Shown: positions 1-17,603 of the stretch, piece after piece
Layout: each line of letters starts with the position of its first letter
Numbering within the stretch: position 1 is the first letter of the stretch
Assembly: GCA_031292305.1 (NCBI GenBank)
Contig: JARLHJ010000032.1
Location: 1-27,596 of the forward strand
DNA length: 27,596 bases
Reading direction: 5' to 3'
DNA from: Candidatus Babeliales bacterium
Lineage (GTDB): Bacteria > Babelota > Babeliae > Babelales > JABDEC01
Notes under the pieces: generated by a model
Told to the model about the DNA's origin: nothing
Seen by the model: the letters and a program-made list of their open reading frames with translations, nothing else
Databases searched by the model: none
Translations under genes and position numbers: made by a program

Positions 1-789
1 AAGGTCAAAGAAGTTGTCAAAAGTTCACCTGTATTAGATAAGTCAGCGAGTGCAATACTTGCACGTAGAAAAGCTATTCAAGGTGATGATGAAGAAATGG
101 GACCAGGCATCGAATTAGATGATGTTCTACCTTCGCCTTCAACTAAGAATTCAACTTTAGCTAGATCGACATCTGCTCCAACCACGGCGGCAGAAAAACA
201 AGCGATATTAAACAAACAATCTGCTGCGCAAGCAAAAATGAAAGCAAAGGCAGCGGCTACTAAGGCAAGAGTGGAAAAAAATATTAAAGAGGCTCAAGAA
301 AAATTAAGCGTTGCTAAAAAAACTGGTACAAAAACGGAAATAGAAACAGCACAAAAAGAATTATTGGATGCTCAGAATCCATTACTAAGTAGTATAAGAG
401 CTGGTAAAGAATTAAAAGAGTCTGCAAAACAAGAGGTTGTAAAAACTCCAATCAAGCAAGAAAAAGCTTCAGCAATAAGCTCTAATTTAAAAGCTAAAGT
501 TCAAGCAAAAGTTTCTAAAGGCGCATTAAAAACCGCACAAGATAAATTAAAAGAAGCAAAAGATGCACATGATTGGGAAGATTCTAAAGAAAGCGCTGCA
601 GCATTAAAGCAAGCAGAAGCTGAATTGGAATTACTAAAAGTTCAAGAAGCAGAACAAGCATCTGCAAGTGATGCTCCGCCAGCGGGAAGCCAAGCTGCCG
701 ATAATATAGCAGAATCTAATGTGACAATAGATGATGTGACTACAGAACCTGTTATTGATGTTAATAGAGAATCTCTTATGGGATTATAA
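1..789 (+). CDS. Lys/Ala-rich envelope-type protein, 5' truncated by window edge
   Basis: The reading frame is open from base 1 to the TAA at 787-789, so the start and any signal peptide lie outside the window; 262 residues are visible. The protein is dominated by Ala, Lys, Gln and Glu in patterns typical of long helices or coiled coils and has no visible membrane segment or cysteine. Its last ~40 residues (APPAGSQA, then NVTIDD, EPV and ESLMGL at the very end) align with the C-terminus of the next gene, showing that the two are paralogues at least in their tails. It is the first visible gene of a twelve-gene same-strand run, 18 bases before the next start. I do not recognise a family. A role as an envelope-associated helical protein is inferred from the neighbours only. 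Confidence 0.75.
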   Translation, partial: KVKEVVKSSPVLDKSASAILARRKAIQGDDEEMGPGIELDDVLPSPSTKNSTLARSTSAPTTAAEKQAILNKQSAAQAKMKAKAAATKARVEKNIKEAQEKLSVAKKTGTKTEIETAQKELLDAQNPLLSSIRAGKELKESAKQEVVKTPIKQEKASAISSNLKAKVQAKVSKGALKTAQDKLKEAKDAHDWEDSKESAAALKQAEAELELLKVQEAEQASASDAPPAGSQAADNIAESNVTIDDVTTEPVIDVNRESLMGL

Positions 790-807
790 AAAAGGAAGGA
801 TTTTGCA

Positions 808-1761
808 ATGAAAAAATTATTAATGACCTTATTAATAGTGTGTTCAATTAATGGTATTGCCAAAGTTGAATATAAACAGTTTGTAAAGCAGCCAACCGCA
901 AAGCAGCTTTTAGCAACAAAGGATATTGATTCTTTTGTAAAAGTAATAGTTGATAAAACGGTTGCAACAAATTTGCAAAACCCAAGTATGAAAACTAGCG
1001 CGACTGATATATTTAAAGTATATGAACGCGATCCTAATTTTAAAAAATTGATGCAAGACAAAGATATAACAGTGCAAGAAGTTGCCAAATTATTGCCTGC
1101 GCAAGACAAAATGATTCCATCATTAGTTGCAAATGCAAAGAATGCACAAAGGGCAAAAGCTGTTGCGTCTCAAAGTGCACAAGAAAGAACTGGCAAAACT
1201 TCTGTCAGCGATGATAGATTAGCTTCTGCTAAAGAGTTTGTTACTTTAGAAAATTTAGTAACTGAAGCTTCTAAGGCTACTTCTCCAACAATTAAAAAAA
1301 GTCTTTTAGATAGCGTAAATAAGCAACTTAAGTCTAATAAGTTATCAAAAGTTTCGGATGCTTTAAAAAATGAACTTAAGCAAAAAATAGAAACTTTGCA
1401 AAAAGCTGAACCTGCACCAAAAGTGGAAACTACTTCCAAAGCCAAATCCACAGCACAGCAAGAATATGAGGCATATAGTAAAGCAAATAAAGGTTATGCA
1501 CAAGAATTGGAAGCAAGAATGAAAGCCGAAGCACAAGCAAAGGCAGCGAATGCAAAAACATTACTTGATGCAAAAGCAGAACTTGCGCAAGTGCAAGCTC
1601 AGGAAAAACTTACAAATTTAGAAAATAAAGCTAAAAGCGCTGGGTCTAGTGCACCAGCAGCTGGAAGTCAGGCTGACCAAGCTATGCAAGACAATGTAAC
1701 AATAGAAGATGATGTAAATTATGAGCCTGTTGAGATGTCAGAATCTATTGCAGGATTATAA
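808..1761 (+). CDS. secreted Lys/Ala-rich helical protein, paralogue of upstream gene
   Basis: This is a 317-residue protein. Residues 1-19 form a signal peptide (MKKLLMTLLIVCSINGIA), so it should be exported; AAGGAAGG at 792-799 supports the ATG at 808. The mature part is rich in Ala, Lys, Gln and Glu with strong helical or coiled-coil character (roughly residues 130-280), no second membrane segment and essentially no cysteine after the signal peptide. The C-terminus carries APAAGSQA, NVTIEDDV, EPV and ESIAGL, shared with the preceding truncated gene and ending exactly at the stop in both. A conserved extreme C-terminus suggests a binding or localisation signal, but this is inference. I do not recognise a family. 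It probably belongs to one transcription unit with its neighbours (gaps of 18 and 24 bases). Confidence 0.82.
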   Translation: MKKLLMTLLIVCSINGIAKVEYKQFVKQPTAKQLLATKDIDSFVKVIVDKTVATNLQNPSMKTSATDIFKVYERDPNFKKLMQDKDITVQEVAKLLPAQDKMIPSLVANAKNAQRAKAVASQSAQERTGKTSVSDDRLASAKEFVTLENLVTEASKATSPTIKKSLLDSVNKQLKSNKLSKVSDALKNELKQKIETLQKAEPAPKVETTSKAKSTAQQEYEAYSKANKGYAQELEARMKAEAQAKAANAKTLLDAKAELAQVQAQEKLTNLENKAKSAGSSAPAAGSQADQAMQDNVTIEDDVNYEPVEMSESIAGL

Positions 1762-1785
1762 AAAAATAAAAAAGGGGTTTGAGCT

Positions 1786-3129
1786 ATGAAATTAAAAATA
1801 TTTTTTTTAACAATATTAATGTTAAACAATGCAGTTGTTCTTCAAGGTGCGCCGATTAAATTGAAACCTAAGGCAGCTAAAGTTGTAAAAGCGCCAGTAA
1901 AAAAAGCGCCAGTAAAAAAAGCTCCAGTAAAAAAAGCGCCAGTAAAAGTTCCAGCAAAAAAAGCTCCGGCAATTAGCCCAGCACTTGCAAAAATTAATGC
2001 ACAAATTGCAGCTGAAAAAGCAAAGATTGCAGCTCAAAAAGCACATCCAGCCACAACAGCAACGGTAATTAATGTAACAGCATTAGCAACTTGCTTGAAA
2101 GCTGATCCTTCAAAGCCAACTACAGCTGCTTGCCAAGCAGTTTTTGATAGTTGTGTAAATGCTGATCCAAAAGCACAAACTAATGCACAATATAAGCAAT
2201 GCATATCTTTAGAACAATTGATTTGTGGTATAACCAATCCCGATATGACACAATCACAAGCGCAAACCTGTGGCAATGTTGCAAAATTAACTGATAAGAG
2301 TGGTGGCGCGAGTGCATTTACAGCATTTATATCAACTCCATTGGGCGGTTTAACTGCGGCTCTAATTGGTTTTGGTGTTCTTTTACCACTATTGCATGCA
2401 GGTATTCCGGCAATTGGTAAATATTTAAAGAGTTTAGCTCCCAAAGTAAGTGAGTATGAAGCTTCTCAAAATAAATTAAATGCAGCGCAAGCTAAAATGG
2501 ATGCAGCGCAAGCTAAATTTAAGGCTAATCCAAATGACCCGCAAGCATTATCAGAACGTACACAAGCAGCTAAGGAATTAAATAGTGCAAAACTAGAATT
2601 TCAACAAAAAGGTCAAGAAATGTTAAAAAGCAAGGCTGATGCCCATGCACAAATAGCTAAAGATGCAAGAGCGGCAGCTAATGCCGAACCAGGTAATAAA
2701 GCATTACAAGAAGCGGCAACGAATGCTGAAGCTGCATCTAATGCCGCAAAAGCTGACGTTGTACAAAATGCAAAAGCGAATCAGGCAGCTACTGCTGAAG
2801 CAGCATCTGTAGATTTATCAGGTGTTGAAACAGAACTTGGTACGCCAGTTAGTGCAAGACCTGCACCAGTGGTTGATTTAAATAACCTTTCTGAGCTTGA
2901 CCTTGAAACGCCTTCAACTAATACACCTTTAGAGCCTCAAGGAGTAACAACTCAACGTGCTTCAGTAGGATCGGAAATTAGTGCCGCAGATCAAGAAGCA
3001 GCTAATTCTGCGCAAACGGAAAACCAAGGAAAGTTGAAACAAATATCTCAAAATAATGCAGCTAATTCAAGCGGGGAAGAAGGTCTCACAGAAGAAGAGG
3101 AAGAAATGATGGCAGAGGAAAGGCCTTAA
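1786..3129 (+). CDS. single-pass envelope protein: KAPVK spacer, Cys module, TM, acidic tail
   Basis: This is a 447-residue protein. A signal peptide (residues 1-21) is followed by a low-complexity K/A/P/V stretch (about 24-65) containing four perfect KAPVK units. Six cysteines lie between residues 103 and 162, including a C-x6-C pair around QAVFDS, and probably form disulfides in a small helical domain. A hydrophobic segment at about 186-207 should cross the membrane, placing the Ala/Gln-rich helical region (about 220-345) on the cytoplasmic side if the signal peptide is cleaved. The C-terminal ~100 residues (VVDLNNL, GSEISAADQEAA, NNAANS, then a run of Glu) match the tails of the genes at 3431 and 15233. 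RBS AAAGGGG precedes the ATG. The family is unknown; architecture is read from sequence, topology is inferred. Confidence 0.85.
   Translation: MKLKIFFLTILMLNNAVVLQGAPIKLKPKAAKVVKAPVKKAPVKKAPVKKAPVKVPAKKAPAISPALAKINAQIAAEKAKIAAQKAHPATTATVINVTALATCLKADPSKPTTAACQAVFDSCVNADPKAQTNAQYKQCISLEQLICGITNPDMTQSQAQTCGNVAKLTDKSGGASAFTAFISTPLGGLTAALIGFGVLLPLLHAGIPAIGKYLKSLAPKVSEYEASQNKLNAAQAKMDAAQAKFKANPNDPQALSERTQAAKELNSAKLEFQQKGQEMLKSKADAHAQIAKDARAAANAEPGNKALQEAATNAEAASNAAKADVVQNAKANQAATAEAASVDLSGVETELGTPVSARPAPVVDLNNLSELDLETPSTNTPLEPQGVTTQRASVGSEISAADQEAANSAQTENQGKLKQISQNNAANSSGEEGLTEEEEEMMAEERP
1888..1947 (+). repeat. 15-bp tandem repeat coding for KAPVK, four units
   Basis: Four consecutive 15-base units of the form AAAGCGCCAGTAAAA (one carries GCTCCA instead of GCGCCA) encode KAPVK four times directly after the signal peptide of the surrounding gene. 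The 12-base word GCGCCAGTAAAA also occurs twice in the spacer of the gene at 6052. Such repeats can change length by slippage or recombination, so the spacer length may vary between strains. Confidence 0.9.
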
Positions 3130-3178
3130 TTGAAATGAAATCAATTATATTAATTAAGTGTTATAAAAGGAGGCTATT

Positions 3179-3385
3179 ATGAAAAAGTTATATGTTGTTT
3201 TATTATCAGCGTGTTTAATTACATTAATTAATATTAATGGAGCAGGTGCACCAAAGGCAAAAGCAACTGCAGTAAATTCAGCTAATGCTGCTAATAAAAA
3301 AGGCAATAAATGTAGTTTTTATGCATTCCAAAGTAAAGATGGTTCAAATGCATATTTTGTTACTGAGTGCCCTATAAATAAGTAA
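3179..3385 (+). CDS. small secreted protein, 68 aa
   Basis: A short gene with a very good ribosome binding site (AAGGAGG at 3167-3173, five bases before the ATG). Residues 1-24 form a signal peptide ending near GAGA; the mature product is only ~44 residues. It starts with a K/A/N-rich stretch (APKAKATA) and ends with a small region containing two cysteines (KCSFYAF and ECPINK) that could form one disulfide. The spacer-then-Cys layout is a miniature of the larger neighbours. No family is recognised. The strong RBS and its place inside the same-strand array argue that it is real despite its size. Confidence 0.75.
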   Translation: MKKLYVVLLSACLITLININGAGAPKAKATAVNSANAANKKGNKCSFYAFQSKDGSNAYFVTECPINK

Positions 3386-3430
3386 TAAAAAAAGAGCTAG
3401 TTTTATAGAATATTTTATTTGGGGGTTATT

Positions 3431-4717
3431 ATGAAAAGGCATTGGATATTTTTACTATTTTTAGCGGTTAATCATATTCTTGTAATTGAGCCTATTGTAA
3501 AAGGTGTAAAAAAACCTTTGGTTAAGACTAAAAATGTAAAACCAATAAAACAAAAGCCAAATGTTGTAATAGCGCCAATAAAAGCTACCACAGTTTCGCC
3601 AATTGTAATAACACCAAATGTTACACCAACTCCAAATGTGAATACTGTACCAACAGTTCATGGAGCACCGGCTGTAAAACCTATCGGCACAACAGCGAAT
3701 AATACGCCAATACCAACTATTAATCCGGCATCTGGAGCTGTTGCAACAACCTTTGCATCAAAGGCAGATGGTTGTAATAACATTGGTCAAAGTTGCACAT
3801 GTTCTAATAAGGGTTTAGGTATATGTAGCGTGAAGGATAAAATATTATCATGTAATTGTTCTCCTATCGCTTTAGGTAAAGACGGAACGTGTTCTTCTGG
3901 TTATCACAAAAATGATTCTGGGACATGTTGTCCAACAAATCAAGATTTAGACTCTAATTTTCTTTGTGCGCCAGCAAAACTTGCAAATGACCCTATGGAT
4001 TGGACCAAGAATTTCCTATCTATGAGTAATTGGAGCAATGAAAGCGATTCACAAAAAGTTGTAAGCGTACTTGAAGAAGTTGGTAAGATTGCTGTAGTTA
4101 GTATAGGTGCAACAGCAGCTTTGGCTATATTAGCAGCATTTGTGGTTGTAGCAGTTGTTGTAGAAGGTAGTAGTTTTGGTGGTTGGGGTGGTAGTGGCCG
4201 TGTTAGAAGTTGGGGTAGCAGTTCATCTTATTCAAATCAAAAAGATTTTGAGAATGAAATTAAAAATCAAGAACCGGCAAACCCAGATAAAATTTCTAGC
4301 GCAACTACTATTGAGGGTATGGAACTTAATCCAGCTGGAGATGGCCAACCAGCAAGAACAGTGCAAAATAATCTACCACGTGAAAATATTAATGTTGAAC
4401 CAGGCAGTGAAACACCAATTGATTTAGAAAATATAGATCTAGAAGCTCCAACAGATTTATCAAATCTTGAAGGTCTAAGCGCGCCAGGTGAAAGCCCAAT
4501 AGGTAACGTCGGCGAGAATGGCTTTGATGTTGAACCAGAGGCAACAGGTCCAAGTGCTTCATTAGCTGGCGAAGTTAGTGCTACGGATGCGCAAGCAGCT
4601 CAAACTGAACATGCAAAAATGCAAGGTCAACAAGACCAGATAGCTAAAAGCAAAACAACTAATTCTGCGACTCAAGAAGAGTTGTTAGAAGAAGAGGAAT
4701 TATTAGACGCGCGATAA
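3431..4717 (+). CDS. single-pass envelope protein: K/P spacer, Cys-rich ectodomain, TM, acidic tail
   Basis: The ATG at 3431 is chosen because it starts a good signal peptide (MKRHWIFLLFLAVNHILV) just after a GGGGG-containing RBS; a TTG four codons earlier overlaps that RBS. Length 428 residues. After the signal comes a K/V/P/T-rich spacer (about 24-105), then a cysteine-rich ectodomain (about 110-180; SCTCSNKG, SCNCSP, GTCCPTNQ) resembling EGF/TNFR-like strings. A strongly hydrophobic segment lies at about 220-247, followed by a Gly/Trp/Ser linker (FGGWGGSG). The C-terminal region (PTDLSNL, NVGENGFDVE, SLAGEVSATDAQAAQT, poly-Glu end) is nearly the same as that of the gene at 15233 and related to that at 1786. 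Topology ectodomain-out, tail-in is inferred. The family is unknown. Confidence 0.85.
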   Translation: MKRHWIFLLFLAVNHILVIEPIVKGVKKPLVKTKNVKPIKQKPNVVIAPIKATTVSPIVITPNVTPTPNVNTVPTVHGAPAVKPIGTTANNTPIPTINPASGAVATTFASKADGCNNIGQSCTCSNKGLGICSVKDKILSCNCSPIALGKDGTCSSGYHKNDSGTCCPTNQDLDSNFLCAPAKLANDPMDWTKNFLSMSNWSNESDSQKVVSVLEEVGKIAVVSIGATAALAILAAFVVVAVVVEGSSFGGWGGSGRVRSWGSSSSYSNQKDFENEIKNQEPANPDKISSATTIEGMELNPAGDGQPARTVQNNLPRENINVEPGSETPIDLENIDLEAPTDLSNLEGLSAPGESPIGNVGENGFDVEPEATGPSASLAGEVSATDAQAAQTEHAKMQGQQDQIAKSKTTNSATQEELLEEEELLDAR

Positions 4718-4754
4718 ATTAATTATAAAATTATTTTTAAATTGTAATTAATTA

Positions 4755-4784
4755 TTGATTTTTATATTGTGATTTTATTAATAT
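4755..4784 (+). promoter_or_regulatory. possible promoter for the Sel1-repeat gene
   Basis: The 106-base gap is very AT-rich. TTGATT at 4755-4760 is followed after 18 bases by TAATAT (4779-4784), about 40 bases before the next ATG. The same kind of arrangement occurs upstream of the gene at 7558. In sequence this AT-rich chance matches are likely, so confidence is low. Confidence 0.3.
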
Positions 4785-4823
4785 TAGTAATAATGTTGTT
4801 TTGTGCTTTAAATTAGGAAAACA

Positions 4824-6065
4824 ATGAAAGCAAAATTTTATTTATTAATATTTTTATTAACAACTTTTGGCTACAATCAATCCAAAGTTGCAGAAAAAAA
4901 GAGCGATTCAAAAACTCAAGTTAAATCTCAAAAAGAAAAAGCTAGTGATAAAGAAGATTTGGCTAAGCAAATACAGGGTGTATTAAAAATATTTCATGAT
5001 ACAATAGCCAATCCTAAAACTAGTTTTAAACAAAAGCTGAATGCAGCCATAAGTATGGTTGCTGTAAATTGTAGTATTGGTAACTGTGCAAACGCTTTAG
5101 CGAGTTATAAAAAAATATTGGAATTTAATAATCGTATGCCAAAACCGGACCCTGAAATAACAGCGGCTGTTGATTTTGGTATTGGAACTATTTATCAAAA
5201 TGGCATGGGTGTTAAACAAGATCTAGCGCAAGCAAAAAAATATTTTCAACAAGTATTAGACAATCCACAATCTAATAAGGAATTGATTTCAGGTGCTCAT
5301 GCAGCCTTAGCTGTAATGAGTTATGCTGGCAAAGGCGCAGATAAAGATCATACAAAGTCTTTAGAATATTTTAAAGAAATAATCAACAATAAAAAATCAA
5401 GACCAGATATGCTTTCAATTGCACAGGGTAATTTAGCAATTATGTATTTTAAAGGCCAAGGAGTAAAACGAGATATTAAAGAGGCTATTAAATATTTTAC
5501 TGATGTTACTGAAAATCGTGGCGCTATTCCAGTTATTTTAGCTACTGCACAAGGAACACTTGCAAATCTGTATTATGCAGGACGTCATGTCAAAAAAGAT
5601 TATAATAAAGCTGAAAAATACTATAAGGGTTTAACACAAAACCCTAAGGCAATAGCATTTCAAGTTGCGCAAGCTTATTTTCATTTGGCTACAATACACA
5701 AAATTAAAAAAGATTTAAAAAAAGCCGATGAATATTATTTAAAAGCAGATAAAGAATTTACTCATGTTGTTACTAAAAATGTAGATATTCCAAAGAATAT
5801 TTCAGATGCTAACTTTTTTTTAGGAATAATGAATTATAAGGGTTTTGGGGTAGCTGAAAATAAGCAAAAAGCTGTTGAATATCTTAAAAAAGTTACAAAA
5901 GATAATTCTCGCACATATTCTTATGCACAAAAATTAATAAATGAAGCACATAATTCCAAAGCAAAAAAAATTAGTAAATTAGATGGCTCTAAAATAAAAA
6001 AGACTACAAAGCCCAAAAAACAAGTAGCAGTAAAACATAAAGAGGTTAAACATGAAAAGAAATAA
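4824..6065 (+). CDS. secreted Sel1-like repeat protein
   Basis: This is a 413-residue protein with a signal peptide (residues 1-20) and about six Sel1-like (SLR) helical repeats between residues ~115 and ~375. Recognisable units include GTIYQNGMGVKQDLAQAKKY, LAIMYFKGQGVKRDIKEAIK and GIMNYKGFGVAENKQKAVEY, each ~45 residues apart; one unit (HKIKKDLKKADEYY) lacks the Gly-rich turn. SLR proteins act as scaffolds for protein-protein contacts and are frequent in host-associated bacteria. The C-terminal ~45 residues are strongly basic (KKTTKPKKQ, KHKEVKHEKK). The last 14 bases overlap the start of the next gene, indicating translational coupling. Location is periplasm or outside; partners are unknown. 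Confidence 0.88.
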   Translation: MKAKFYLLIFLLTTFGYNQSKVAEKKSDSKTQVKSQKEKASDKEDLAKQIQGVLKIFHDTIANPKTSFKQKLNAAISMVAVNCSIGNCANALASYKKILEFNNRMPKPDPEITAAVDFGIGTIYQNGMGVKQDLAQAKKYFQQVLDNPQSNKELISGAHAALAVMSYAGKGADKDHTKSLEYFKEIINNKKSRPDMLSIAQGNLAIMYFKGQGVKRDIKEAIKYFTDVTENRGAIPVILATAQGTLANLYYAGRHVKKDYNKAEKYYKGLTQNPKAIAFQVAQAYFHLATIHKIKKDLKKADEYYLKADKEFTHVVTKNVDIPKNISDANFFLGIMNYKGFGVAENKQKAVEYLKKVTKDNSRTYSYAQKLINEAHNSKAKKISKLDGSKIKKTTKPKKQVAVKHKEVKHEKK

Positions 6066-7461: not shown

Positions 7462-7483
7462 ATGTTGATTTTCCGTGACACTA

Positions 7484-7557: not shown

Positions 7558-9297
7558 ATGAAGTTTAAATTGATTTTATTTTTATTAGGCTTCACAGGAG
7601 TATTGCTTTCAAGTGAAGTTCTTGTTTTAAAGCCAATAAGTGTTGCACCTAAAGTGCTTACTTTGAAACCAGTTGCAAAACCCGTTGCTAAGACTGTCGC
7701 TAAACCAGTTGTAAAAAAACCAGTTGCAAAACCAGTTCCTAAGGCTGTAGTAAAACCCGTAGTAAAAAAACCAGTTGCAAAACCAGTTGCTAAGCCCGTG
7801 ATAAAACCCGTTGCTAAGCCTGTCGCAAAACCTATTGTGCAACCTGCTTCTGTAGTACCTATTGCAAAGCCAATAATTGCAGACAAACCAATATTAAAAT
7901 GTACTGGTGGCCAAGTAGCAAATAGTACTGGCACTGCATGTATTTGCCCGATAAATGAAACTTTAGTAAATGGTGTATGTTGTGAAGAAGATTCTTATTC
8001 TGAAAATGGTAAAACATGTTCAACTTGTCCTGAAGGTGGCCAATTAAGTGAAGATGGTAAATCTTGCCCATGTCCGGATGATAAATATTTAGTAAATGGT
8101 ATTTGTTGTGATGAAAATTCTTATAGCGCAGATGGTAAAACATGTTCAGTTTGTATTCCAGGTGGTCAAGTAAGTGCAGATGGTAAATCATGCCCATGTG
8201 CTATTTCGGGTCAAATTATAATAGACGGTGCTTGCTCTTGTCCCATAGGGCAAGAAGTTGTGGGAAACAGTTGTCAGCCAATCGGTTGCCAAGGCGGAAC
8301 ATTAACTGGCAATACATGTAGTTGTGCAATTGCGGGTCAAGTACCTATAAATGGAGTATGTTCTTGTCCAACAGGTCAAACCCTAGTTAATGGAATATGT
8401 TGTAAAACTGGCCAAATATCTGATGGTAAAACTTGTAAAAATTGTACAGGTAAAGCGAGCGCTGACGGTTCTGCTTGCTTAGGCAAACAACAATCCAAAC
8501 CAGTTCCACCTTCAGCAATACCGTTTGCGATTTATAACAACACCTTTGATTCTATTAAAATTTTTACAGTGGCTATTGCTCCAGGTTATTATTACTCAAC
8601 AAAAAATTTCCCTTCAGTTGCAAGTGGTTTAAGATGCCCAATATTTTTACCAACTAATAGCAATGCAGATTACTCAGTTGTAAATAGTGCAGTACCATTT
8701 ACATTAAGTGGTCAAAGAACATATAAAGGAGCTTGGGCATGGAAAGCATCATATATGTGTCCATCTGTAAGTGATCCTAACTCGCCTTCATATTCTGCAG
8801 TTAGTAGTGTTGTTGTTGTTTATAGCGTCAATGGTCAATCAGCAAAAACAACTAAAGTTTTCTTGATAAATAGCAATATAGATAGTTTTGTTATCGCCTT
8901 TGGCAATAGCATGTACGATAGTTATAACAATCGTCTTCCTTTAGAAAATAGTATAACTATAGAAACAGCAAAACAGGCTGGTGGAACTATAGCGGGTCAA
9001 GCTGGCGCACAGATAACAACTTTGCCTTACATAGATCAAAATACAACGAATTTAGCGCCTTGTAGTGCAGATGGTATATCACCTTTAAACACTGCTTGTG
9101 GATGCACCAATTATCCAGATTCAAGCTTACCTTATGCAGGTGGAACATGTTCAAGGCTTGATTGGAGAAACAATAGTCCGCTTGTAGTGTCAGCAGCGGC
9201 AATGGGTGGAGATTCAGATGCATCGGCCGGGCCTATTTATCAAGATAGTAGTACCAGCACAGGCGGCGATATTCCAGTTGATCCTGCAGATAGTTAA
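7558..9297 (+). CDS. secreted protein: long KPVA spacer, EGF-like Cys repeats, beta-rich C-terminus
   Basis: This is a 579-residue protein with RBS AAGGA five bases before the ATG. A signal peptide (1-19) is followed by LKP-containing sequence and a highly regular K-P-V-A/K-P-V-V-K spacer (about 37-94). Residues 115-307 hold some 30 cysteines in short modules (ACICP, LVNGVCC, GKTCSTCPEGG, DGKSCPCP), with one exact tandem duplication of a 42-residue unit (130-171 and 172-213). Residues ~320-480 look beta-rich (IPFAIYNNTFDSIKI, SAVSSVVVVYSVNG) with few cysteines. The C-terminus has a few more Cys and ends acidic (PVDPADS). No second membrane segment is present. It is probably a surface or secreted adhesin-like protein; the fold assignments are by pattern only. 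Confidence 0.85.
   Translation: MKFKLILFLLGFTGVLLSSEVLVLKPISVAPKVLTLKPVAKPVAKTVAKPVVKKPVAKPVPKAVVKPVVKKPVAKPVAKPVIKPVAKPVAKPIVQPASVVPIAKPIIADKPILKCTGGQVANSTGTACICPINETLVNGVCCEEDSYSENGKTCSTCPEGGQLSEDGKSCPCPDDKYLVNGICCDENSYSADGKTCSVCIPGGQVSADGKSCPCAISGQIIIDGACSCPIGQEVVGNSCQPIGCQGGTLTGNTCSCAIAGQVPINGVCSCPTGQTLVNGICCKTGQISDGKTCKNCTGKASADGSACLGKQQSKPVPPSAIPFAIYNNTFDSIKIFTVAIAPGYYYSTKNFPSVASGLRCPIFLPTNSNADYSVVNSAVPFTLSGQRTYKGAWAWKASYMCPSVSDPNSPSYSAVSSVVVVYSVNGQSAKTTKVFLINSNIDSFVIAFGNSMYDSYNNRLPLENSITIETAKQAGGTIAGQAGAQITTLPYIDQNTTNLAPCSADGISPLNTACGCTNYPDSSLPYAGGTCSRLDWRNNSPLVVSAAAMGGDSDASAGPIYQDSSTSTGGDIPVDPADS
7666..7839 (+). repeat. KPVA/KPVVK low-complexity repeat
   Basis: About 58 codons made almost entirely of Lys, Pro, Val and Ala, with recurring words such as AAACCAGTTGCA and AAACCCGTTGCT in tandem. 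The synonymous codon variation between units (CCA/CCC/CCT, GTT/GTA/GTC) suggests selection on the protein composition rather than fresh DNA slippage. Confidence 0.85.
7945..8196 (+). repeat. 42-residue tandem cysteine unit, two copies
   Basis: Residues 130-171 and 172-213 of the surrounding gene align without gaps: both contain LVNG[VI]CC at the same offset, then [ED]E[DN]SYS, DGKTC/NGKTC, GGQ[LV]S and DGKSCPC. DNA is also clearly similar, so this is a relatively recent internal duplication. Confidence 0.85.
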
Positions 9298-9317: not shown

Positions 9318-12300
9318 ATGAGATTATTTAAAGCTGTATTTTTTATAATAATTTTAGCAAATGCTGAAATTATATTTGCAACTTGCGGTGCTCCAGGTGT
9401 TACATGTAACCAAGATAGCGATTGTTGTGGATACTGTGATACATCAGCCTCTGCGGCCGCAGGTGATATATATTTGACAGGTACATGTAAAGGTCAAGCA
9501 CAATGCCCAGGGAATTTAATAATGGGCTCAAATGGCAAATGTGTATGTCCACCAAATCAAACTTTGCAACCAGGTGGTCAAATGTGCTGTCTTGCAAATC
9601 AAGTACTTGTTAATGGAAAATGTGTTTGTCCTGGAAATCAACAAATAGGGCTTGATGGAAAAACTTGCGTGTGTGATACCACTAAACAATATTTAGCATC
9701 AGATGGGAAAACCTGTTGCGCATTTAACCAAACATTTAATAATGGTGTTTGTAATAATTGCCCAGCGGGACAACTAAGTGTTAATAACGTTTGCGTTAAT
9801 AACACATGTCAAAGTGGATATATTGCAGCAGTGAATCAAAATGCACCTCAAAGAATAGTTTGTAGCCCACCACCCGTAAAATTTTGCCCTGATGATACAT
9901 TGTTGCCAAATAATATTTATACCAATCTTATTCCACCAATTTCAGACCCTACATATAATATGTGTTTATCATCTTGTAGTGCCCTAGGGCAATCTGGAGC
10001 CACCTACTTAAAAACTTGCGTTGCAAAATGCCCAACAGGAACAATTCCCTATTCTCTTACTGATGGCAGTACAGGCTCAGATTGTTACTTTCAAAACTCA
10101 ATTGAGGGAAGTTGTGGATGCATGACGATTGTGCCTAATGCGAGTGGCTGTAGCAAAGGAACATATTTTTTTGATGGTTATCCTGCAACAGGTACACCTG
10201 TTGACTTTGGTAAAAAATCAACAGTCTTTGGGGATATTGTAAATCAAAATGGTAAATCCGCTGGTATATGCGTACCATCATGTCCCTTGGGAACTGTAGT
10301 TTCTGCTAATGGTAATAGTTGTGTTGCCGCTACATGCCCAGCTGATTACAGCTTAGCACAAAGTGGCCCTGTGCCATGGTTACATGGTAGTGACAATAAT
10401 ATGCCTTATGATTCTTCGGATATAACTACAGGTGGTTTGAAATGTTATAAAATACCACCAGATCCGGGAGGCTTTGATTTGAGTGGTGTAGTATCATTTT
10501 TTTCAGACGCTTTTGATGACCTATGTGCTCAAAAAAACGTCGCAGGAACAATTTGCAAGATTGACAAAAATGGCTTAAATGTAGGAGCGGATCTACTTAA
10601 CTTTGGTAATGATGCTTATCAAATGGGTGTTGCTTTTGCAAATGATATTAACAATTGTCATGGCGATACTTTAACACAGTTTGAAGAGGTAGTTGGAGCT
10701 TCATCAAATAACACAGATTTTAATGTTAATTTTGCCTCTACTGGGGTAAATATAACTACAGATCAATCGGGTACAAAAAATAGCATAGCTACAACAGTAT
10801 TAAATGACCCTGGAACAATACCAGATGGACAATCTTTAGGAAAGTATGTACCACCATCACCTATGAGTGGAACATTTAATTTTACTAATAATACAAAAGA
10901 TACAATTACTATTAATTCTATTAATACTGGTAATTTAACAGGTTGTACTTTTAACTTGCCACTTAAAATAGCGGCTGGCAAAAGTGCAAGTCTTGGTTAT
11001 TCAAGTTGTTCAATCGGAACTTCCGGTTGGCTTACATACACAAGCGGTACTGGTTCTGGTGCAGTTAATTTTACAAATTTAACTGCAGGTGGTTGTTCTA
11101 GTATTTGGCAAGCTACTGGAACGCAGGATATCTATAATTCTGGTTATCAAATTTCACATGGTCAAAATGTTATGGGTAGTGTTACAACAAATCTATTAGG
11201 CAGTGGTCTTGGTGCAACAACTTTAAACGTTTTAAGCCAAATGGGCCAAGTAATTAATACGGTATTAACAACAGGATTAGGAATAAAAGTTCCTTGTCCT
11301 GACGCCAGATATAATTTATGTAATGACTGTTCTGCACCCAATGTTTGTACAAGTTTTGGAATGTGTTCAGATGGATCACCACCTATTTGTAAAGTTCAAC
11401 CAGCTACAAAATGTTCTGATGGTTCAAAACCACCTTGTAAAGATTCTGGTTCAAAAATAACAGACTTTACAAATTGCCCAGCTAAAGATAAAACTTTTCC
11501 TGATTGTGGAAGTGCAGATAACCCTTGCATATACCCACCTTGTGCAGATGGATCCAACCCGACAATAGATGCTAAAGGAAGGCCAATTTGCAAGGGATAT
11601 GGATATTGCCAAGATGCCAATTCTTCTGCACCTGTTTGTAAGGGCGCAGATCCAAATGATCCTTGGGAGATGTATGAAATAAATTCTATAGCACCATGTT
11701 TTGATGGCAAGGATCACACATGTGCCGATAAATCTAAGCCAGCATGTATAGATAATAAATATGAATTAACTGCTGCTGCACCTTGGGGTGCTATTCATCA
11801 ATTTGTTGGTCCAATATTTCAAGAATTTGATAAAAGTTGCTGTGACGGTTACCTAGGAATGAGTATTGACGTGATTCTTGGTGTAGTAGGGCCTGGATGG
11901 GCACCTTTTGTAAATCCATTGGACCCTGATCCACCAGCAGAAGGTTCAACAAGTGGGCTAGTAACTATTAATACGGCAGAGGGTCCACAGCAAGTAAACG
12001 TTGTAACAAGCGCTTTTAATAATATTGATTATATTTGTAAAAATAATGGTAAGGAATTACCAACTACAAATGTTTTAACTGGGACACTTAAAATAGAAAT
12101 TACTGACAAAGATAGCTCTAAGCCGAGCGTGTCTTTTACCACGCAACCTTTTGCGTTTTATTATGGTGATAATTTAGAAGTGCATGTTGATCCTACAAAT
12201 GCAGGTGTATCTATTTATAGAGCAGATGCTGCTACAAATAATCAATTATACTTAGTAAATTGCGGGTCTAATGTCCTTCCGGGGTATACAACTGAAATAA

Positions 12301-12425
12301 ATTGTGGATGTAATGTAAATGGAAAACCAGGACAAATTAATTCTGCAGGCAGTGATTGTACTGGCGTTGCAGATACTACTTTAGTACAAGGTCCACAAGT
12401 GTCTATTGCAGGACCACAAAAATAA
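9318..12425 (+). CDS. very large secreted Cys-rich multidomain protein, knottin-like N-terminus
   Basis: This is a 1035-residue protein with a signal peptide (about 1-21) but no K/P spacer. The mature N-terminus reads TCGAPGVTCNQDSDCCGYC, giving C23-x6-C-x5-CC-x2-C-x16-C, close to an inhibitor-cystine-knot pattern. Then come EGF/TNFR-like strings (to ~170), a long mixed region with scattered Cys, a beta-rich domain (about 515-600, TFNFTNNTKDTITI and IAAGKSASLGYSS), a set of C-x-DGS-x-P-x-C modules (about 680-820; KCSDGSKPPC, PCADGSNP), and a beta-rich C-terminus with final cysteines (INCGCNVNG). No second membrane segment. Its size and many disulfides point to an extracellular or surface protein. 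The start follows TAGGGG weakly spaced; the next gene's RBS overlaps its stop codon. The family is unknown. Confidence 0.85.
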   Translation: MRLFKAVFFIIILANAEIIFATCGAPGVTCNQDSDCCGYCDTSASAAAGDIYLTGTCKGQAQCPGNLIMGSNGKCVCPPNQTLQPGGQMCCLANQVLVNGKCVCPGNQQIGLDGKTCVCDTTKQYLASDGKTCCAFNQTFNNGVCNNCPAGQLSVNNVCVNNTCQSGYIAAVNQNAPQRIVCSPPPVKFCPDDTLLPNNIYTNLIPPISDPTYNMCLSSCSALGQSGATYLKTCVAKCPTGTIPYSLTDGSTGSDCYFQNSIEGSCGCMTIVPNASGCSKGTYFFDGYPATGTPVDFGKKSTVFGDIVNQNGKSAGICVPSCPLGTVVSANGNSCVAATCPADYSLAQSGPVPWLHGSDNNMPYDSSDITTGGLKCYKIPPDPGGFDLSGVVSFFSDAFDDLCAQKNVAGTICKIDKNGLNVGADLLNFGNDAYQMGVAFANDINNCHGDTLTQFEEVVGASSNNTDFNVNFASTGVNITTDQSGTKNSIATTVLNDPGTIPDGQSLGKYVPPSPMSGTFNFTNNTKDTITINSINTGNLTGCTFNLPLKIAAGKSASLGYSSCSIGTSGWLTYTSGTGSGAVNFTNLTAGGCSSIWQATGTQDIYNSGYQISHGQNVMGSVTTNLLGSGLGATTLNVLSQMGQVINTVLTTGLGIKVPCPDARYNLCNDCSAPNVCTSFGMCSDGSPPICKVQPATKCSDGSKPPCKDSGSKITDFTNCPAKDKTFPDCGSADNPCIYPPCADGSNPTIDAKGRPICKGYGYCQDANSSAPVCKGADPNDPWEMYEINSIAPCFDGKDHTCADKSKPACIDNKYELTAAAPWGAIHQFVGPIFQEFDKSCCDGYLGMSIDVILGVVGPGWAPFVNPLDPDPPAEGSTSGLVTINTAEGPQQVNVVTSAFNNIDYICKNNGKELPTTNVLTGTLKIEITDKDSSKPSVSFTTQPFAFYYGDNLEVHVDPTNAGVSIYRADAATNNQLYLVNCGSNVLPGYTTEINCGCNVNGKPGQINSAGSDCTGVADTTLVQGPQVSIAGPQK

Positions 12426-12433
12426 GGAATTTT

Positions 12434-13090
12434 ATGAAAAGCATTAAAAGTTTAATTTTTGTAGTTTCTATTTTAGCTATAAACAACTTATGCAGTAATA
12501 CAAAAAGCTTTGTTATTAAAAATCTAAAAGCACAAAATGGTAGCGTAAAAGCTACACTTACAATTACAGGGAGCTATTCAAATACGTCAGAGGAAAATTT
12601 CCAATGTAGCCAGAATATGACGAATGTAAAACCATTAACACAAAGTTTTGCAATTGCAAAACTTACTGCAACCAATAAAACAAATGCTGTAATCACCACG
12701 CCTAAGCCAGCTACTACTGCTACAACGGTAAAGCCAGCTGCTACAACTGTAAAACCGAAGCCGGTTGCTACAGCTGTAAAGCCAGCAACAACCCCTATAA
12801 AACTTTTACCAACAAAACCACAGGCAGCACCTGTTACAGCTGTTATAAAACCAAAGGCTACTGCAGCAGGAGCTAAACCAGTAATCCAGACAAAGTCTTT
12901 ACCGAAAAAACCTGTTGCAAAGCCTAAGGCAAAACCAAAAAAACCTGTTGTAAAACCAAAACCCGTTGCAAAACCTGTAGTTTTAAAATTACAGCCAGCA
13001 AAGCCTAAGCAGGTAGTTTTAAAACCCATAGTAGTAAAGCCGGCAGTTAAAAAACCTTTAGTGCTAACCCTGAAACCTGAAAATGAATAA
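12434..13090 (+). CDS. secreted protein with long C-terminal Lys/Pro-rich tail
   Basis: The ATG at 12434 is chosen: it follows TAAGGA (overlapping the upstream stop) by five bases and starts a signal peptide (MKSIKSLIFVVSILAI). Any earlier start in this frame lies inside the upstream gene. Length 218 residues. After the signal comes a short region (about 26-75) with a beta-like SFVIKNLKAQNGSVKATLTI and one cysteine, then ~140 residues of Lys/Pro/Ala/Thr/Val repeats reaching the C-terminus (TTVKPAATTVKPK, KPKAKPKKPVVKPK, ending LVLTLKPENE). The LTLKP word resembles the one found after the signal peptides of other proteins here, but it sits at the C-terminal end. It might link surface structures or bind a polyanion; that is inference. 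Confidence 0.8.
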   Translation: MKSIKSLIFVVSILAINNLCSNTKSFVIKNLKAQNGSVKATLTITGSYSNTSEENFQCSQNMTNVKPLTQSFAIAKLTATNKTNAVITTPKPATTATTVKPAATTVKPKPVATAVKPATTPIKLLPTKPQAAPVTAVIKPKATAAGAKPVIQTKSLPKKPVAKPKAKPKKPVVKPKPVAKPVVLKLQPAKPKQVVLKPIVVKPAVKKPLVLTLKPENE

Positions 13091-13122
13091 AAGGGAATTG
13101 CAGTAAAATTAATTACAAACTG

Positions 13123-13152
13123 TTGATTTTTTTAAATAAAATTTGCTAAAAT
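13123..13152 (+). promoter_or_regulatory. promoter with extended -10 upstream of the 656-aa gene
   Basis: TTGATT (13123-13128), an 18-base spacer, then TGCTAAAAT whose TAAAAT (13147-13152) is a good extended -10. It lies in the 102-base gap, ~40 bases upstream of the GTG start, and would begin a new transcript within the array. Confidence 0.55.
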
Positions 13153-13192
13153 GTGATTAGGATACGATTTTTAATAAAAAAAGGAGTTTGCA

Positions 13193-15163
13193 GTGAAGAT
13201 AATAAAAATAGGACAAATGATTTTAATATTATTATTTTTTAGTAATAATATGCTAATTGATGGTATAACTTTAAAGCCAGTAGTTGCTAAAAAACCAGTT
13301 GCAGCAGCAACAAAGGCCAAACCAAAGGCAACGCCGGCACTTAAGCTGGTACCTAAGGCAGCACCCAAGGCAGCTCCTAAAGTAGCTCCAAAGGCAGCGC
13401 CTAAAGCAACTCCTAAGGCAACGCCTGCGGCAACTCCGAAGGCAGTTCCTAAGGCAACTCCAACTCCAGATTTAACTACACAAATTAACACTTGTTTAGC
13501 AGGATTAATGCCAGGTGGACTAAAAACTCCACAAACAGCTGCACAGAAAGCTACCTGTAATACTCAATTTAAATCTTGCGCCGCAGCAGCCGTAGCTGGT
13601 TCTAAAGCTCAAAAAGCACAAACAGCGGCTCAAAAAACAGCATGTTCTGGATTTGTAACAAATTGTAATCAAGCAGAAAAATATTATTCAACCTGTAAGG
13701 CTTTAAATCTCACAACTGCTACTGCGACACAAAAATCCCAATGTCAAACAATTCAGGCATTGTACGCACCTTGTATAGCTGCAGGAATAAAACCAGTTGC
13801 ACCAACAGTTGCACCTACGCCGGGATTTGTATCAAGTGGAACAACTACAACTGCAACAACAGCAGCAAGTGCAACAAAGGCGCCACAAGAAGATCCTGGA
13901 AGAGTAAATACTTTACAATGTAAAATAAATACTTGTACATCTAAATATTATCAACCTACAGGTCCAAATGATCCAACGCCTGCTGGACTAAATCCAGATG
14001 CGACAAAATATTCAAATTGCGTTGCTTTTGCAAATGGAACTTTCTGTAACACTTATTCTTCATCTAAGCAAGGATTAACTCCTGCAGAATCTACAGGTTG
14101 TAAGCAATTAGCATGTACTAGTCAGTATTATGTACCCACAGGTGCAAGTGATACAACTCCTGCGGGAAAAACTCCTAATGCAACAAAATTAAAAACTTGT
14201 CAGACTTATGCAAAATCTAATTATTGCCAAGCTAATAAAGCGTCATTAACTGGTGATAATAAAGAAATTTGTACTTTATTATCAGGACCAGTGCCTTTAC
14301 CTAGCAATGGTGCTTCATTAGGTTGTCCAGAAATAACAGCTGATTCTAGTATTAATGGTGCTGGAGATATTTGTGCAGCGCAAGCATATTGCATAGTAGA
14401 TTCGTGCCAAAGTGCAAATCCAATTTTACAAGATAATAATGATGCAAAGGCTTGTTTAACTACTTGTCAAGTAGCTAAAGATAATGACTATGCTGATCCA
14501 CAAAGAATACTTAATACAGCTGCAGTTACGGCTTGTAATGCTGCAATATCGGCAGCAGCAATACCACCTGGACCATCACTTACAGATCAAATAATTAAAT
14601 ATGGCGGTGCAGCGAGTATGGCATTGATGACTGGTGCTTTAGTTTATGACAAACTTAAGGGTGAAAAGAAACTTTCACCTGGAGAGAAAGCTGGAGAAAA
14701 GCCACCAGCAGCAGAAAAAGCTCCAATTGAAGCCGAAGCACCACCACCACCAGCAGAATATGAACTTGGCGCTACAGATGTTCCTAACCGACCACCAGTA
14801 GAAGATGGCTTAGGCTCAGCTGAAGGCGGTCTAGACGGCGCATCAGGATTAGAAGGCGCATCAGGACTAGAAGGTGCATCAGGACTAGAAGGCGCATCAG
14901 GCGGTATGGGCGCAGGCAGTGCATCAGGACTAGAAGGCGCAGCAGGCGCAGAAGGTGGACTGTCGGGCGGTATGGGCGGTGGAGCCGCAGCCGGTGAAGC
15001 AACTAATCTTGAGGGAGTGGCTACTACAGCAGAAAAAGGGATTATGTATGAAGGTGAATTAGTCACAATTGCTGAATTAGAAAGCATGGGAAAATCTGTC
15101 CAAGAGATCGAAGAATTAGAACGATTGGCTACAGCGGAAAGAGCAGCAGGAGAGGTACTATAA
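13193..15163 (+). CDS. envelope protein: K/P/A spacer, helical Cys repeats, Gly-rich tail
   Basis: GTG start at 13193, six bases after AAGGAG. Length 656 residues. The signal peptide (about 1-25) is followed by ITLKPVVAKKPVA and a K/A/P spacer with PKAAPKAAPKVAPKAAPKAT (to ~95). A first Cys region (about 100-200) contains CNTQFKSC, matching the C-x6-C pattern in the gene at 1786. Two tandem ~60-residue repeats follow (243-302 and 303-361; CTSKYYQPTG and CTSQYYVPTG), then further Cys pairs. A short hydrophobic segment (about 471-487) may cross the membrane. The tail has a proline-rich part, GLEGAS repeats (about 549-590) and a helical acidic end (IAELESMGKSVQEIEELE). An ATG at codon 9 is an alternative start. 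The family is unknown. Confidence 0.82.
   Translation: MKIIKIGQMILILLFFSNNMLIDGITLKPVVAKKPVAAATKAKPKATPALKLVPKAAPKAAPKVAPKAAPKATPKATPAATPKAVPKATPTPDLTTQINTCLAGLMPGGLKTPQTAAQKATCNTQFKSCAAAAVAGSKAQKAQTAAQKTACSGFVTNCNQAEKYYSTCKALNLTTATATQKSQCQTIQALYAPCIAAGIKPVAPTVAPTPGFVSSGTTTTATTAASATKAPQEDPGRVNTLQCKINTCTSKYYQPTGPNDPTPAGLNPDATKYSNCVAFANGTFCNTYSSSKQGLTPAESTGCKQLACTSQYYVPTGASDTTPAGKTPNATKLKTCQTYAKSNYCQANKASLTGDNKEICTLLSGPVPLPSNGASLGCPEITADSSINGAGDICAAQAYCIVDSCQSANPILQDNNDAKACLTTCQVAKDNDYADPQRILNTAAVTACNAAISAAAIPPGPSLTDQIIKYGGAASMALMTGALVYDKLKGEKKLSPGEKAGEKPPAAEKAPIEAEAPPPPAEYELGATDVPNRPPVEDGLGSAEGGLDGASGLEGASGLEGASGLEGASGGMGAGSASGLEGAAGAEGGLSGGMGGGAAAGEATNLEGVATTAEKGIMYEGELVTIAELESMGKSVQEIEELERLATAERAAGEVL
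13919..14275 (+). repeat. ~60-residue tandem Cys repeat, two copies
   Basis: Residues 243-302 and 303-361 of the surrounding gene share C-x4/5-CTS[KQ]YY-x-PTG, a TPAG turn, [PD]AT/NATK, and later cysteines at matching positions (SNCVAFANGTFC against KTCQTYAKSNYC). This is a clear internal duplication of a four-Cys, probably helical hairpin module. Confidence 0.85.
14837..14905 (+). repeat. 18-bp tandem repeat encoding GASGLE
   Basis: Units of GGCGCATCAGGACTAGAA (one with ATT for ACT, one with GGTGCA) run in tandem from 14837: three full copies and a partial fourth, with a further degenerate copy near 14920. They encode the G-A-S-G-L-E stretch in the C-terminal tail. High identity between units suggests recent slippage or recombination and possible length variation. 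This is one of the least AT-rich segments of the window. Confidence 0.88.
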
Positions 15164-15177
15164 AGAATATATTAACT

Positions 15178-15214
15178 CAGCTAAACGCAACATCAAATAT
15201 GTTGCGTTTAGCTG
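15178..15214 (+). promoter_or_regulatory. perfect 16-bp hairpin between two array genes
   Basis: CAGCTAAACGCAACAT (15178-15193) and ATGTTGCGTTTAGCTG (15199-15214) are exact reverse complements separated by a five-base loop. It starts 15 bases after the stop at 15163 and ends 18 bases before the ATG at 15233, just ahead of its AAAAGGA site. No T-run follows, so it is not a standard intrinsic terminator; an RNA-stability or 5'-leader element, or a protein-binding palindrome, is equally possible. Confidence 0.7.
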
Positions 15215-15232
15215 GATATAAAAAGGATTATT

Positions 15233-17077
15233 ATGAAAATAATGTTTATAAATTATGTTTTTAAAAGAAATCATAAATTTTTAAGAAAATCTTTAGTAAT
15301 TTTATCATTATTAATTTTTAATAATTCTTTTGCAATAACGCTAACGCCACAATCTAAAAAAACTGTTAAAAAAGTGGTTGCACCTACGAAGGTGACTAAA
15401 AAACCGGTCCCAAAAAAGAAGCCTAAACTGATTCAAAAAGTTGTAGTTAAAAAAAGACCAATTACAACCATCAAACCTAAAAAGCCTTTAACGGAAACAA
15501 AAATACAAAATTTTAAAAATTCTTTTTGTAAGCAATTGCAAACTCAAGTAAATCAATGTAAGAAGTCTACAACGCCAACATGTTTGCAAGCTCAACAATC
15601 ATTGCAACTTTGTACTCCAGCTAAAGCTACTCCGACACTATCGCCGGGCACATCTGGCCAGACTTCTACTACTACCATCATTATGCAAGGTGGTAATAAC
15701 GGTGACAGCAGTGGCAGTGGGTCTACTGATTTTTGGCATGATTCATTTAATGAATTTATCTTGGAAATGGTAGCTGGTCTTGTATTAGGAGTTGCTGGGA
15801 TATTCATAGGTGCTTTTCAGGTTTATAAATATTACCAAGACAAAAATGCTGCAAAATTATCTGAAAGCAAGAGCCAAGCAGATCAAGCAAAAGCTGACAA
15901 ATTAAAACAAGTGGCTGAACAAGCTCAACAAGATGCAGAAAAAAATCCTACCAATTCGCAAAAACAAATTGAGGCTGCAACTGCTACGCAAGAAGCCAAT
16001 GCTGCACAAGTTGAAGCAAACAAATCAACAGTGCAAGCAAGCAAAGATGTTGCAAGAGTTAATAGCGGAAACGCTGCTTCTTTAGAGCAAGCGACAACTA
16101 AAATCAAGAATGCCGCACCTGGAAGCCCAGAAGCTGCATTAAAGAATAAATTACCAGAATTAGAAACGGCTACCAAACAAGCAAAAAATAATGCTACAGT
16201 AAGTAATCAAAATTTACAGGATACTGTTAATCAAGTTAATAAAGAAAATCAAACGATTGATCCTGCAGTAGACTTGCCACCTGGTAGCCCAGCACCAGAA
16301 GTTGCAAGCATAGTGCCGGATGCTCCTGCAATGACTATAGATGTACCAACTGCACCACCACTAGCACCAGATGCTCCAACTATTAGATCAAATGAAATAT
16401 CACCAGGTGGGCCAAAAAAAGGAGCAACAGGTGTAACATTAGAAGAAATTAATAGTGTTAAATTGAAACCTGCTCAACCTCTGGAATTAGTCCCCCAAAA
16501 AGGACTAGATATGAATGCTGTTAAAGATGCAGCAAAAGCACGTGCTGATAGGGTTGCAAAAGGCGAAGCAAAAAAAACTGAACTAAAAAAGGCAGTTGAG
16601 CCAGAATTAAACCAGCATGAAAAATTGCAAGCCGAATTGAAAGCAAAATTTAAAACAAGAGCAGCTGCACAGGAAAAAGCCGCTCAAGAGAAAGCTGCTA
16701 AAGAGAAGGCTGCACAAGAAAAAAATGCTGTACCAGAAGAAGAGTTAAAAATAGATTTATCAAATGTTGATATTGCGACGCCTACAGATTTATCAAATCT
16801 TTCAGATCTTGGTGGATCTACTGAAGGTGCAACAAGTAATGTTGGACCAGAAGGTTTTGATTTTGAACAGTGGCAACAGGAGAATGGTGTTTCAGGCAAA
16901 ACTGGTTCATTAGCTGGCGAAGTAAGTGTTGCCGATGCTCAAGCAGCTCAAACTGCTCAAGCAGAAAACCAGGCCAAGCTTACAGAGACAATTAAAAATA
17001 ACGCAGCTAATTCAGGAAATGGAAGCACTTCTGAAGAAGAAGAAGCAGAACAAGAGGCAAGAGAGAGAGAAATATAA
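15233..17077 (+). CDS. single-pass envelope protein: K/P spacer, Cys module, TM, helical acidic tail
   Basis: This is a 614-residue protein. The signal sequence is long (about 1-34, with a basic n-region and a hydrophobic core SLVILSLLIF) and is followed by ITLTPQSKKTVKK and a K/P/V-rich spacer to ~90. Four cysteines (about 100-130; CKQLQTQVNQC, CLQAQQSLQLC) make a small helical module. A hydrophobic segment at about 175-197 should span the membrane. Beyond it lies a long Ala/Gln/Lys-rich helical region (about 205-330), a proline-rich patch, KEKAAQEK-type repeats, and the C-terminal tail PTDLSNL, SNVGPEGFDFE, SLAGEVSVADAQAAQT, NNAANS and a Glu-rich end shared with the genes at 1786 and 3431. 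Last gene of the secreted-protein array before rplI. The family is unknown. Confidence 0.85.
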   Translation: MKIMFINYVFKRNHKFLRKSLVILSLLIFNNSFAITLTPQSKKTVKKVVAPTKVTKKPVPKKKPKLIQKVVVKKRPITTIKPKKPLTETKIQNFKNSFCKQLQTQVNQCKKSTTPTCLQAQQSLQLCTPAKATPTLSPGTSGQTSTTTIIMQGGNNGDSSGSGSTDFWHDSFNEFILEMVAGLVLGVAGIFIGAFQVYKYYQDKNAAKLSESKSQADQAKADKLKQVAEQAQQDAEKNPTNSQKQIEAATATQEANAAQVEANKSTVQASKDVARVNSGNAASLEQATTKIKNAAPGSPEAALKNKLPELETATKQAKNNATVSNQNLQDTVNQVNKENQTIDPAVDLPPGSPAPEVASIVPDAPAMTIDVPTAPPLAPDAPTIRSNEISPGGPKKGATGVTLEEINSVKLKPAQPLELVPQKGLDMNAVKDAAKARADRVAKGEAKKTELKKAVEPELNQHEKLQAELKAKFKTRAAAQEKAAQEKAAKEKAAQEKNAVPEEELKIDLSNVDIATPTDLSNLSDLGGSTEGATSNVGPEGFDFEQWQQENGVSGKTGSLAGEVSVADAQAAQTAQAENQAKLTETIKNNAANSGNGSTSEEEEAEQEAREREI

Positions 17078-17601: not shown

Positions 17602-17603
17602 GA

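What the first reader, a model, noticed from the sequence alone, without database searches (positions are those of the whole stretch)
1..17077. Twelve-gene same-strand array of modular secreted/envelope proteins
Eleven complete genes in a row have signal peptides and nearly all are made by recombining a few parts: post-signal K/P/A/V spacer, Cys modules, one TM, helical region and conserved tails. No housekeeping gene interrupts the run. None of the products belongs to a family I recognise apart from the Sel1 protein. This looks like a lineage-specific envelope or host-interaction locus and is the best candidate for an undescribed system here.
Basis: partly seen in the sequence, partly recalled or inferred. 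Interest (0 to 1): 0.75.

Follow-up and report, generated by a model that had tools for sequence, protein, structure and literature searches.

The report
Modular exported-protein gene array, Dependentiae bacterium
A bacterium from a phylum of parasites of single-celled hosts carries a run of twelve genes for exported proteins built from a few reused parts, found in none of the 100 related genomes searched; they probably work at its surface or in its host, but what they do is unproven.

Summary
Twelve same-strand genes (eleven complete, one cut by the contig end) lie at 1-17077, directly upstream of rplI-dnaB. Ribosome-binding sites and third-position GC match the housekeeping genes, so they are real native genes. 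All eleven complete products start with a signal-peptide-like segment. They share a K/P/A/V spacer, an EGF-like Cys repeat (g06, g07, g08), a Cys-stapled helical module (g10, g11, perhaps g03), one TM segment (g03, g04, g11) and two kinds of conserved tail. Only the Sel1 protein clearly passes a curated family cut-off.

The genome is Dependentiae (Babeliales), whose cultured members are intracellular parasites of protists. In relatives the site upstream of rplI holds pseudopilin and membrane-protein genes instead. The Cys module, the tail, g08 and the small CSFYAF protein have no detectable relative in 100 other genomes of the order. In their own genome the same parts recur in at least four further places, so this array is the largest cluster seen of a dispersed, lineage-restricted family.

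Best explanation: exported surface or secreted host-contact proteins diversified by module shuffling. That function is inferred. A disulfide-linked envelope scaffold is the main rival. A twin-CX9C hint of mitochondrial targeting is a low-probability lead.

The parts
1..789 (+). g01: C-terminal 262 aa of a Lys/Ala/Glu-rich helical protein, 5' end off the contig; tail SDAPPAGSQAADN..NVTIDDV..EPV..ESLMGL
   Evidence: tail homologous to g02 (44% over 64 aa, E 2e-6)
808..1761 (+). g02: signal peptide, helical, same tail as g01
1786..3129 (+). g03: signal peptide, K/P/A/V spacer, Cys module (C-X6-C ... C-X7-C), one TM (about 2350-2406), helical region, acidic tail type A
3179..3385 (+). g03b: 68-aa small exported protein with CSFYAF.SKDG...YFVT.C; second copy on contig C16, in both places just upstream of a signal peptide-spacer-TM protein
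3431..4717 (+). g04: signal peptide, spacer, 10-Cys module (about 3773-3967), one TM (about 4103-4159), acidic tail type A
4824..6065 (+). g05: signal-peptide Sel1 repeat protein (5 repeats)
   Evidence: PF08238 E 3.6e-26, above cut-off; relatives on C16
6052..7461 (+). g06: signal peptide, K/P/A spacer, two copies of an unassigned domain (inferred beta-rich by eye), EGF-like Cys repeat (6844-7380)
7558..9297 (+). g07: signal peptide, K/P/V/A spacer, EGF-like Cys repeat (7894-8475), unassigned C-terminal domain
9318..12425 (+). g08: 1035 aa, 67 Cys, signal peptide, EGF-like Cys repeat at the N-terminus (9486-9890), other Cys-rich segments, no spacer
   Evidence: PF19202 match, E 2.5e-5 and 25.0 bits in the protein (cut-off 27.1), 31.1 bits in the genome scan
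12434..13090 (+). g09: signal peptide, short N-terminal domain, K/P/A/V spacer running to the C-terminus (reversed module order)
13193..15163 (+). g10: signal peptide, K/P/A spacer, helical Cys modules including C-X9-C-X15-C-X9-C (13664-13774), possible weak second hydrophobic segment, Gly/Ala/Glu-rich tail
15233..17077 (+). g11: signal peptide, K/P/V spacer, C-X9-C-X7-C-X9-C motif (15527-15613), one TM (about 15755-15811), coiled-coil region, acidic tail type A
27222..27596 (-). C-terminal part of a further family member on the opposite strand (K/P/A/V spacer plus a C-terminal Cys domain); its 5' half with EGF-like Cys repeats is at the end of contig C36 (18-base overlap, frame kept, 300 aa in all)

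Best explanation
The locus is the largest cluster seen of a modular exported-protein family restricted, in the genomes held, to this one Dependentiae genus. Shown: open genes with native codon usage, shared modules, recurrence of the modules at four other loci of the genome, no detectable relatives in the other genomes searched. Inferred: the proteins leave the cytoplasm by the Sec route. The spacer is an extended stalk, and the Cys repeats are small disulfide-stapled binding modules like the EGF or TNF-receptor modules of eukaryotic extracellular proteins. In g03, g04 and g11 (and the 272-aa C16 protein) one TM segment anchors the stalk and module outside the membrane with a helical and acidic tail inside. 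In g06, g07 and g08 there is no anchor, so they end up in the periplasm, on the surface or outside. Duplication and recombination through the repetitive spacer DNA would reassort modules, giving a fast-evolving repertoire for contact with a eukaryotic host cell.
For: Module sharing inside the array and with C16, C36, C8 and C15. A two-gene unit (small CSFYAF protein, then a spacer-TM-tail protein), followed by a Sel1-containing protein, occurs both at 3179-6065 and on C16 8857-11333. No detectable relatives in 100 other genomes of the order for the tail, the Cys module, g08 or the small protein. The rplI upstream site in relatives is occupied by other genes. Spacer proteins occur only in this genome among 357 ORFs of the first set surveyed, most of them from relatives. 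Cys repeats point weakly to eukaryotic extracellular modules: EB module 9e-4, NCD3G 2.9e-6 and TNFR-like 2.3e-6 for the C15 member, all below the curated cut-offs, with Pfs25/P25 among the weak, non-significant profile and fold neighbours. The phylum is host-dependent: 44% of C. destructans proteins have signal sequences (PMC6561590), and Babela has 7 secreted Cys-rich plus beta-barrel proteins compared to LDL receptors (PMC4378268).
Against: No direct evidence of location or binding. Signal peptides and TM segments come from hydropathy only. Predicted models are of low confidence (mean pLDDT 38 and 45). No DsbA-like (PF13462) or VKOR match was found in the genome, so how the disulfides would form is unclear. 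No conservation across genomes, so no comparative evidence of function.
Confidence: 0.5

Rival explanations
1. Structural envelope proteins: K/P-rich stalks and Cys modules form a cross-linked scaffold in the periplasm or outer envelope, as the cysteine-rich outer membrane proteins of Chlamydia do, with TM-tail proteins linking it to the inner membrane.
For: One-TM proteins with a spacer outside the membrane and a long helical tail; TonB/TolA-like composition hits, all far below cut-off; Cys-rich exported proteins in bulk; C. destructans is reported to lack LPS biosynthesis genes (PMC6561590).
Against: No detectable relative in the 100 other genomes of the order searched; a core envelope scaffold should be more conserved. 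No oxidase found.
Confidence: 0.25
2. Translocated effectors, some of which fold in the host mitochondrial intermembrane space through twin CX9C helical hairpins.
For: Twin CX9-10C motifs in g10, g11 and twice in a C16 family member; among 614 ORFs the only other match lies in the EGF-like repeat of g07. In the g10 model two helices at pLDDT about 80-88 carry the motif. Weak hits to COX6B (0.23), CX9C (0.81) and ATPTG9 (0.23). C. destructans is surrounded by the host mitochondrion (PMC6561590). Few Dependentiae have a DsbA-like protein (4 of 95).
Against: No hit is significant; placement-in-span P values are only 0.05, 0.012 and 0.0005, computed after the motif was noticed; spacings of 6 and 7 also occur, so any helix-stapling arrangement would do; the proteins carry bacterial signal peptides; fold search found nothing.
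Confidence: 0.08
3. A neutral expansion: repetitive, low-complexity genes multiplied by recombination with little or no selected function.
For: Spacers are tandem DNA repeats; no conservation outside the genome.
Against: Open frames up to 1035 codons, ribosome-binding sites, and Cys positions and tails kept at 30-47% identity between paralogues suggest selection.
Confidence: 0.1
4. A surface-antigen family that switches or varies by recombination between expressed and silent copies.
For: Several clusters with shared modules and tandem spacer repeats.
Against: No near-identical or truncated silent copies seen; paralogues are far too divergent for recent gene conversion, the closest pair being the Sel1 parts of two C16 proteins (68%).
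Confidence: 0.07

Closest known systems
Babela massiliensis family of 7 large secreted proteins with Cys-rich N-terminal domain and beta-barrel domain (PMC4378268)
   Same: Same phylum, exported, Cys-rich receptor-like modules joined to another domain
   Different: No detectable Cys-module homologue in any other genome of the order searched (Babela itself was not identified by name among them); here a K/P/A/V spacer precedes the Cys part and there are TM-tail and small-protein partners
EGF-like, TNFR-like, NCD3G and EB modules of eukaryotic extracellular proteins
   Same: Repeated short units with C-x-C and C-C spacing and beta hairpins in the model
   Different: No match over a curated cut-off; bacterial; probably convergent or distantly acquired
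Sel1-repeat exported proteins
   Same: g05 and three C16 proteins contain Sel1 repeats
   Different: One C16 protein has twin CX9-10C modules fused in front of the Sel1 repeats
Twin CX9C (CHCH) mitochondrial intermembrane-space proteins
   Same: C-X9-C pairs on two predicted helices in g10; same spacing in g11
   Different: No significant sequence or fold match; bacterial signal peptide
Chlamydial cysteine-rich outer membrane proteins (own knowledge)
   Same: Cys-rich exported proteins of an obligate intracellular bacterium
   Different: Comparison from memory; no sequence test made against them

Membership tests
Sel1 repeat proteins (g05 only) | PF08238 repeats above the gathering score | tested here: met
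   91.1 bits against 30.7, 5 stretches
PF19202 DUF5874 (g08 only) | score over the curated cut-off | tested here: inconclusive
   25.0 bits for the protein but 31.1 bits in the genome scan; cut-off 27.1
EGF-like / TNFR-like / EB modules | curated cut-off of a Pfam module family | tested here: not met
   best 27.9 bits against 33.2
CHCH / twin CX9C family | two C-X9-C motifs on paired helices | tested here: inconclusive
   motif present in g10 and g11, helices predicted in g10; disulfide pairing not seen
CHCH / twin CX9C family | profile match (PF16860, COX6B, solved structures) | tested here: not met
   best E 0.23 to 0.81
CHCH / twin CX9C family | import and oxidation in mitochondria by Mia40 | not testable with these tools
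   needs an experiment
Babela LDL-receptor-like secreted family | sequence homology of the Cys-rich domain | tested here: inconclusive
   no hit in 100 other genomes of the order, but Babela was not identified by name among them
TonB / TolA | NCBIfam equivalog cut-off | tested here: not met
   10-16 bits against 213-377

The most novel reading that the evidence does not exclude
Bacterial exported proteins with twin CX9C helical hairpins that fold in the host mitochondrial intermembrane space, part of a modular kit by which a Dependentiae parasite binds or remodels host organelles.
Probability: 0.05. Interest if true: 0.85.

Novelty: new variant of a known kind. Interest (0 to 1): 0.42.

Why it matters
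Dependentiae are widespread, mostly uncultured parasites of protists, and nearly half of the proteins of one cultured member carry secretion signals, many without known function. Here a concrete, bounded set of such proteins is resolved into modules and found, in the genomes held, in one genus only. It suggests that their host-contact repertoire may be invented largely lineage by lineage through module shuffling, and it names small, expressible modules (Cys repeat, Cys-stapled hairpin, CSFYAF protein) to test.

Tried and rejected
Foreign origin of the array: not supported, GC3 equals that of the housekeeping genes. Contaminant contig: rejected, dnaB is 78% identical to that of the same-family genome G001. 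Phage or prophage: no convincing PHROG match (best 5e-4, over a coiled coil) and no relative in viral contigs. Hits to herpes U30, Mitofilin, TolA and TonB are coiled-coil or composition matches below cut-off. Two scans of the named genome collection with g08 and g11 found nothing. Fold search with both models gave no usable match; the helical Hsp70-lid matches (Z up to 7.2) fall in a low-confidence part of the model and within the range expected of common arrangements. The contig holding the sequence left of g01 was not found: a search of the own genome with the Lnt-like neighbour from G001 gave nothing. The promoter and terminator scan was no better than shuffles.

Full report
What was checked. 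The window is the whole of contig C19 of a 1.53 Mb draft genome in 47 contigs. One relative, G032, is a single contig of 1,174,272 bases, the exact chromosome length reported for Chromulinavorax destructans (PMC6561590), so the order is Babeliales, phylum Dependentiae. dnaB in the window is 78% identical to that of the same-family genome G001, so the contig belongs to this lineage.

The observation. Twelve + strand ORFs occupy 1-17077, the twelfth being a 68-aa gene at 3179-3385 (g03b) that a length filter would drop. Most have a purine-rich ribosome-binding site; GC3 is 0.13-0.21 in the array and 0.14-0.25 in the neighbours. Gaps between genes are short (-14 to 106 bases), which fits a few operons; the promoter scan cannot tell. 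Roughly half of the ORFs in the sampled stretches of this genome start with a signal-like segment by a crude hydropathy rule, so this feature alone is not special; a same-strand run of ten has P of 0.002 to 0.008 in shuffles.

The parts. (1) A K/P/A/V spacer after the signal peptide in g03, g06, g07, g10 and g11, weaker in g04, and at the C-terminus in g09. (2) An EGF-like Cys repeat in g06, g07 and g08 (E 2e-7 to 5e-14). (3) Helical Cys modules in g10, g11 and probably g03, with spacings of 6, 7 and 9. (4) One TM in g03, g04 and g11. (5) Tail type A (DLSN..L.TPTDLSNL...SLAGEVS..DAQAAQ...EEEE) in g03, g04 and g11. (6) Tail type B (PPAGSQA.DN...NVTI.DDV..EPV) in g01 and g02. g05 is a Sel1 protein.

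Elsewhere in the same genome. C16 7731-12313 holds a Sel1 protein whose post-signal linker matches g03 (67% over 30 aa), a second CSFYAF small protein, a spacer-TM-tail protein, a protein with two twin CX9-10C modules fused to Sel1, and another Sel1 protein. The order small protein, TM-tail protein, Sel1-containing protein is the same as at 3179-6065. The right end of the window overlaps the end of C36 by 18 bases, in frame, giving a 300-aa protein with EGF-like Cys repeats, a spacer and a C-terminal Cys domain shared with its C36 neighbour. C15 has a single Cys-repeat protein. C8 has a spacer fused to a beta-propeller-like protein. Only part of the genome was read, so further members may exist.

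Elsewhere in the order. Order- or phylum-wide searches with the tail, g08, the small protein and the Cys profile found only this genome. In the relatives examined the site upstream of rplI usually carries pseudopilin-like genes and an Lnt-like membrane protein, with ileS and a large exported protein beyond them. Scans of named genomes and of viral contigs found nothing. These searches show absence at detectable similarity, not absence of very distant relatives; g02, g09 and g10 were not searched order-wide on their own.

How it may work. See the best explanation. Export, stalk and binding roles are inferred. The twin CX9C lead rests on spacing, on one helical prediction at pLDDT about 80-88 in g10 (model residues 60-102) and on three non-significant hits to mitochondrial-type families. 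It was noticed after the fact and is given 5%. No PF13462 (DsbA-like) or VKOR match was found in this genome and few relatives have the former, so where the disulfides form is an open question; other oxidases were not tested.

Verdict. A real, striking, lineage-restricted modular family with one large cluster. It is a new variant of a known kind (expanded exported ORFan families of Dependentiae), not shown to be a single system.

Noticed in passing
window 27222-27596 and L068 12240-12785: The window's right end overlaps the end of contig C36 by 18 bases, joining one gene across two contigs; C36 carries two more modular exported genes next to it.
   Followed up: yes
L069 10158-14602: Two tandem exported beta-propeller-like proteins on C8, 50% identical, only the first with the long K/P spacer: an example of spacer gain or loss between duplicates.
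   Followed up: partly
window 17152-26869: Around rplI, dnaB and ruvC small exported ORFans (19019, 19486, 20019, 21179) lie between the core genes; in G001 different small exported ORFans lie at the corresponding places.
   Followed up: no
relatives, upstream of rplI (L036-L055): A common block of ileS, a large exported protein on the opposite strand, pseudopilin-like genes and an Lnt-like protein; the Lnt-like protein of G001 has no match in this genome.
   Followed up: partly
L046 2941-3756: In the C. destructans-length genome three very similar small membrane proteins (71-88 aa) lie in tandem upstream of rplI.
   Followed up: no
order-wide: Only 4 of 95 genomes of the order match PF13462 (DsbA-like), although the proteins studied here are Cys-rich and exported.
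   Followed up: partly
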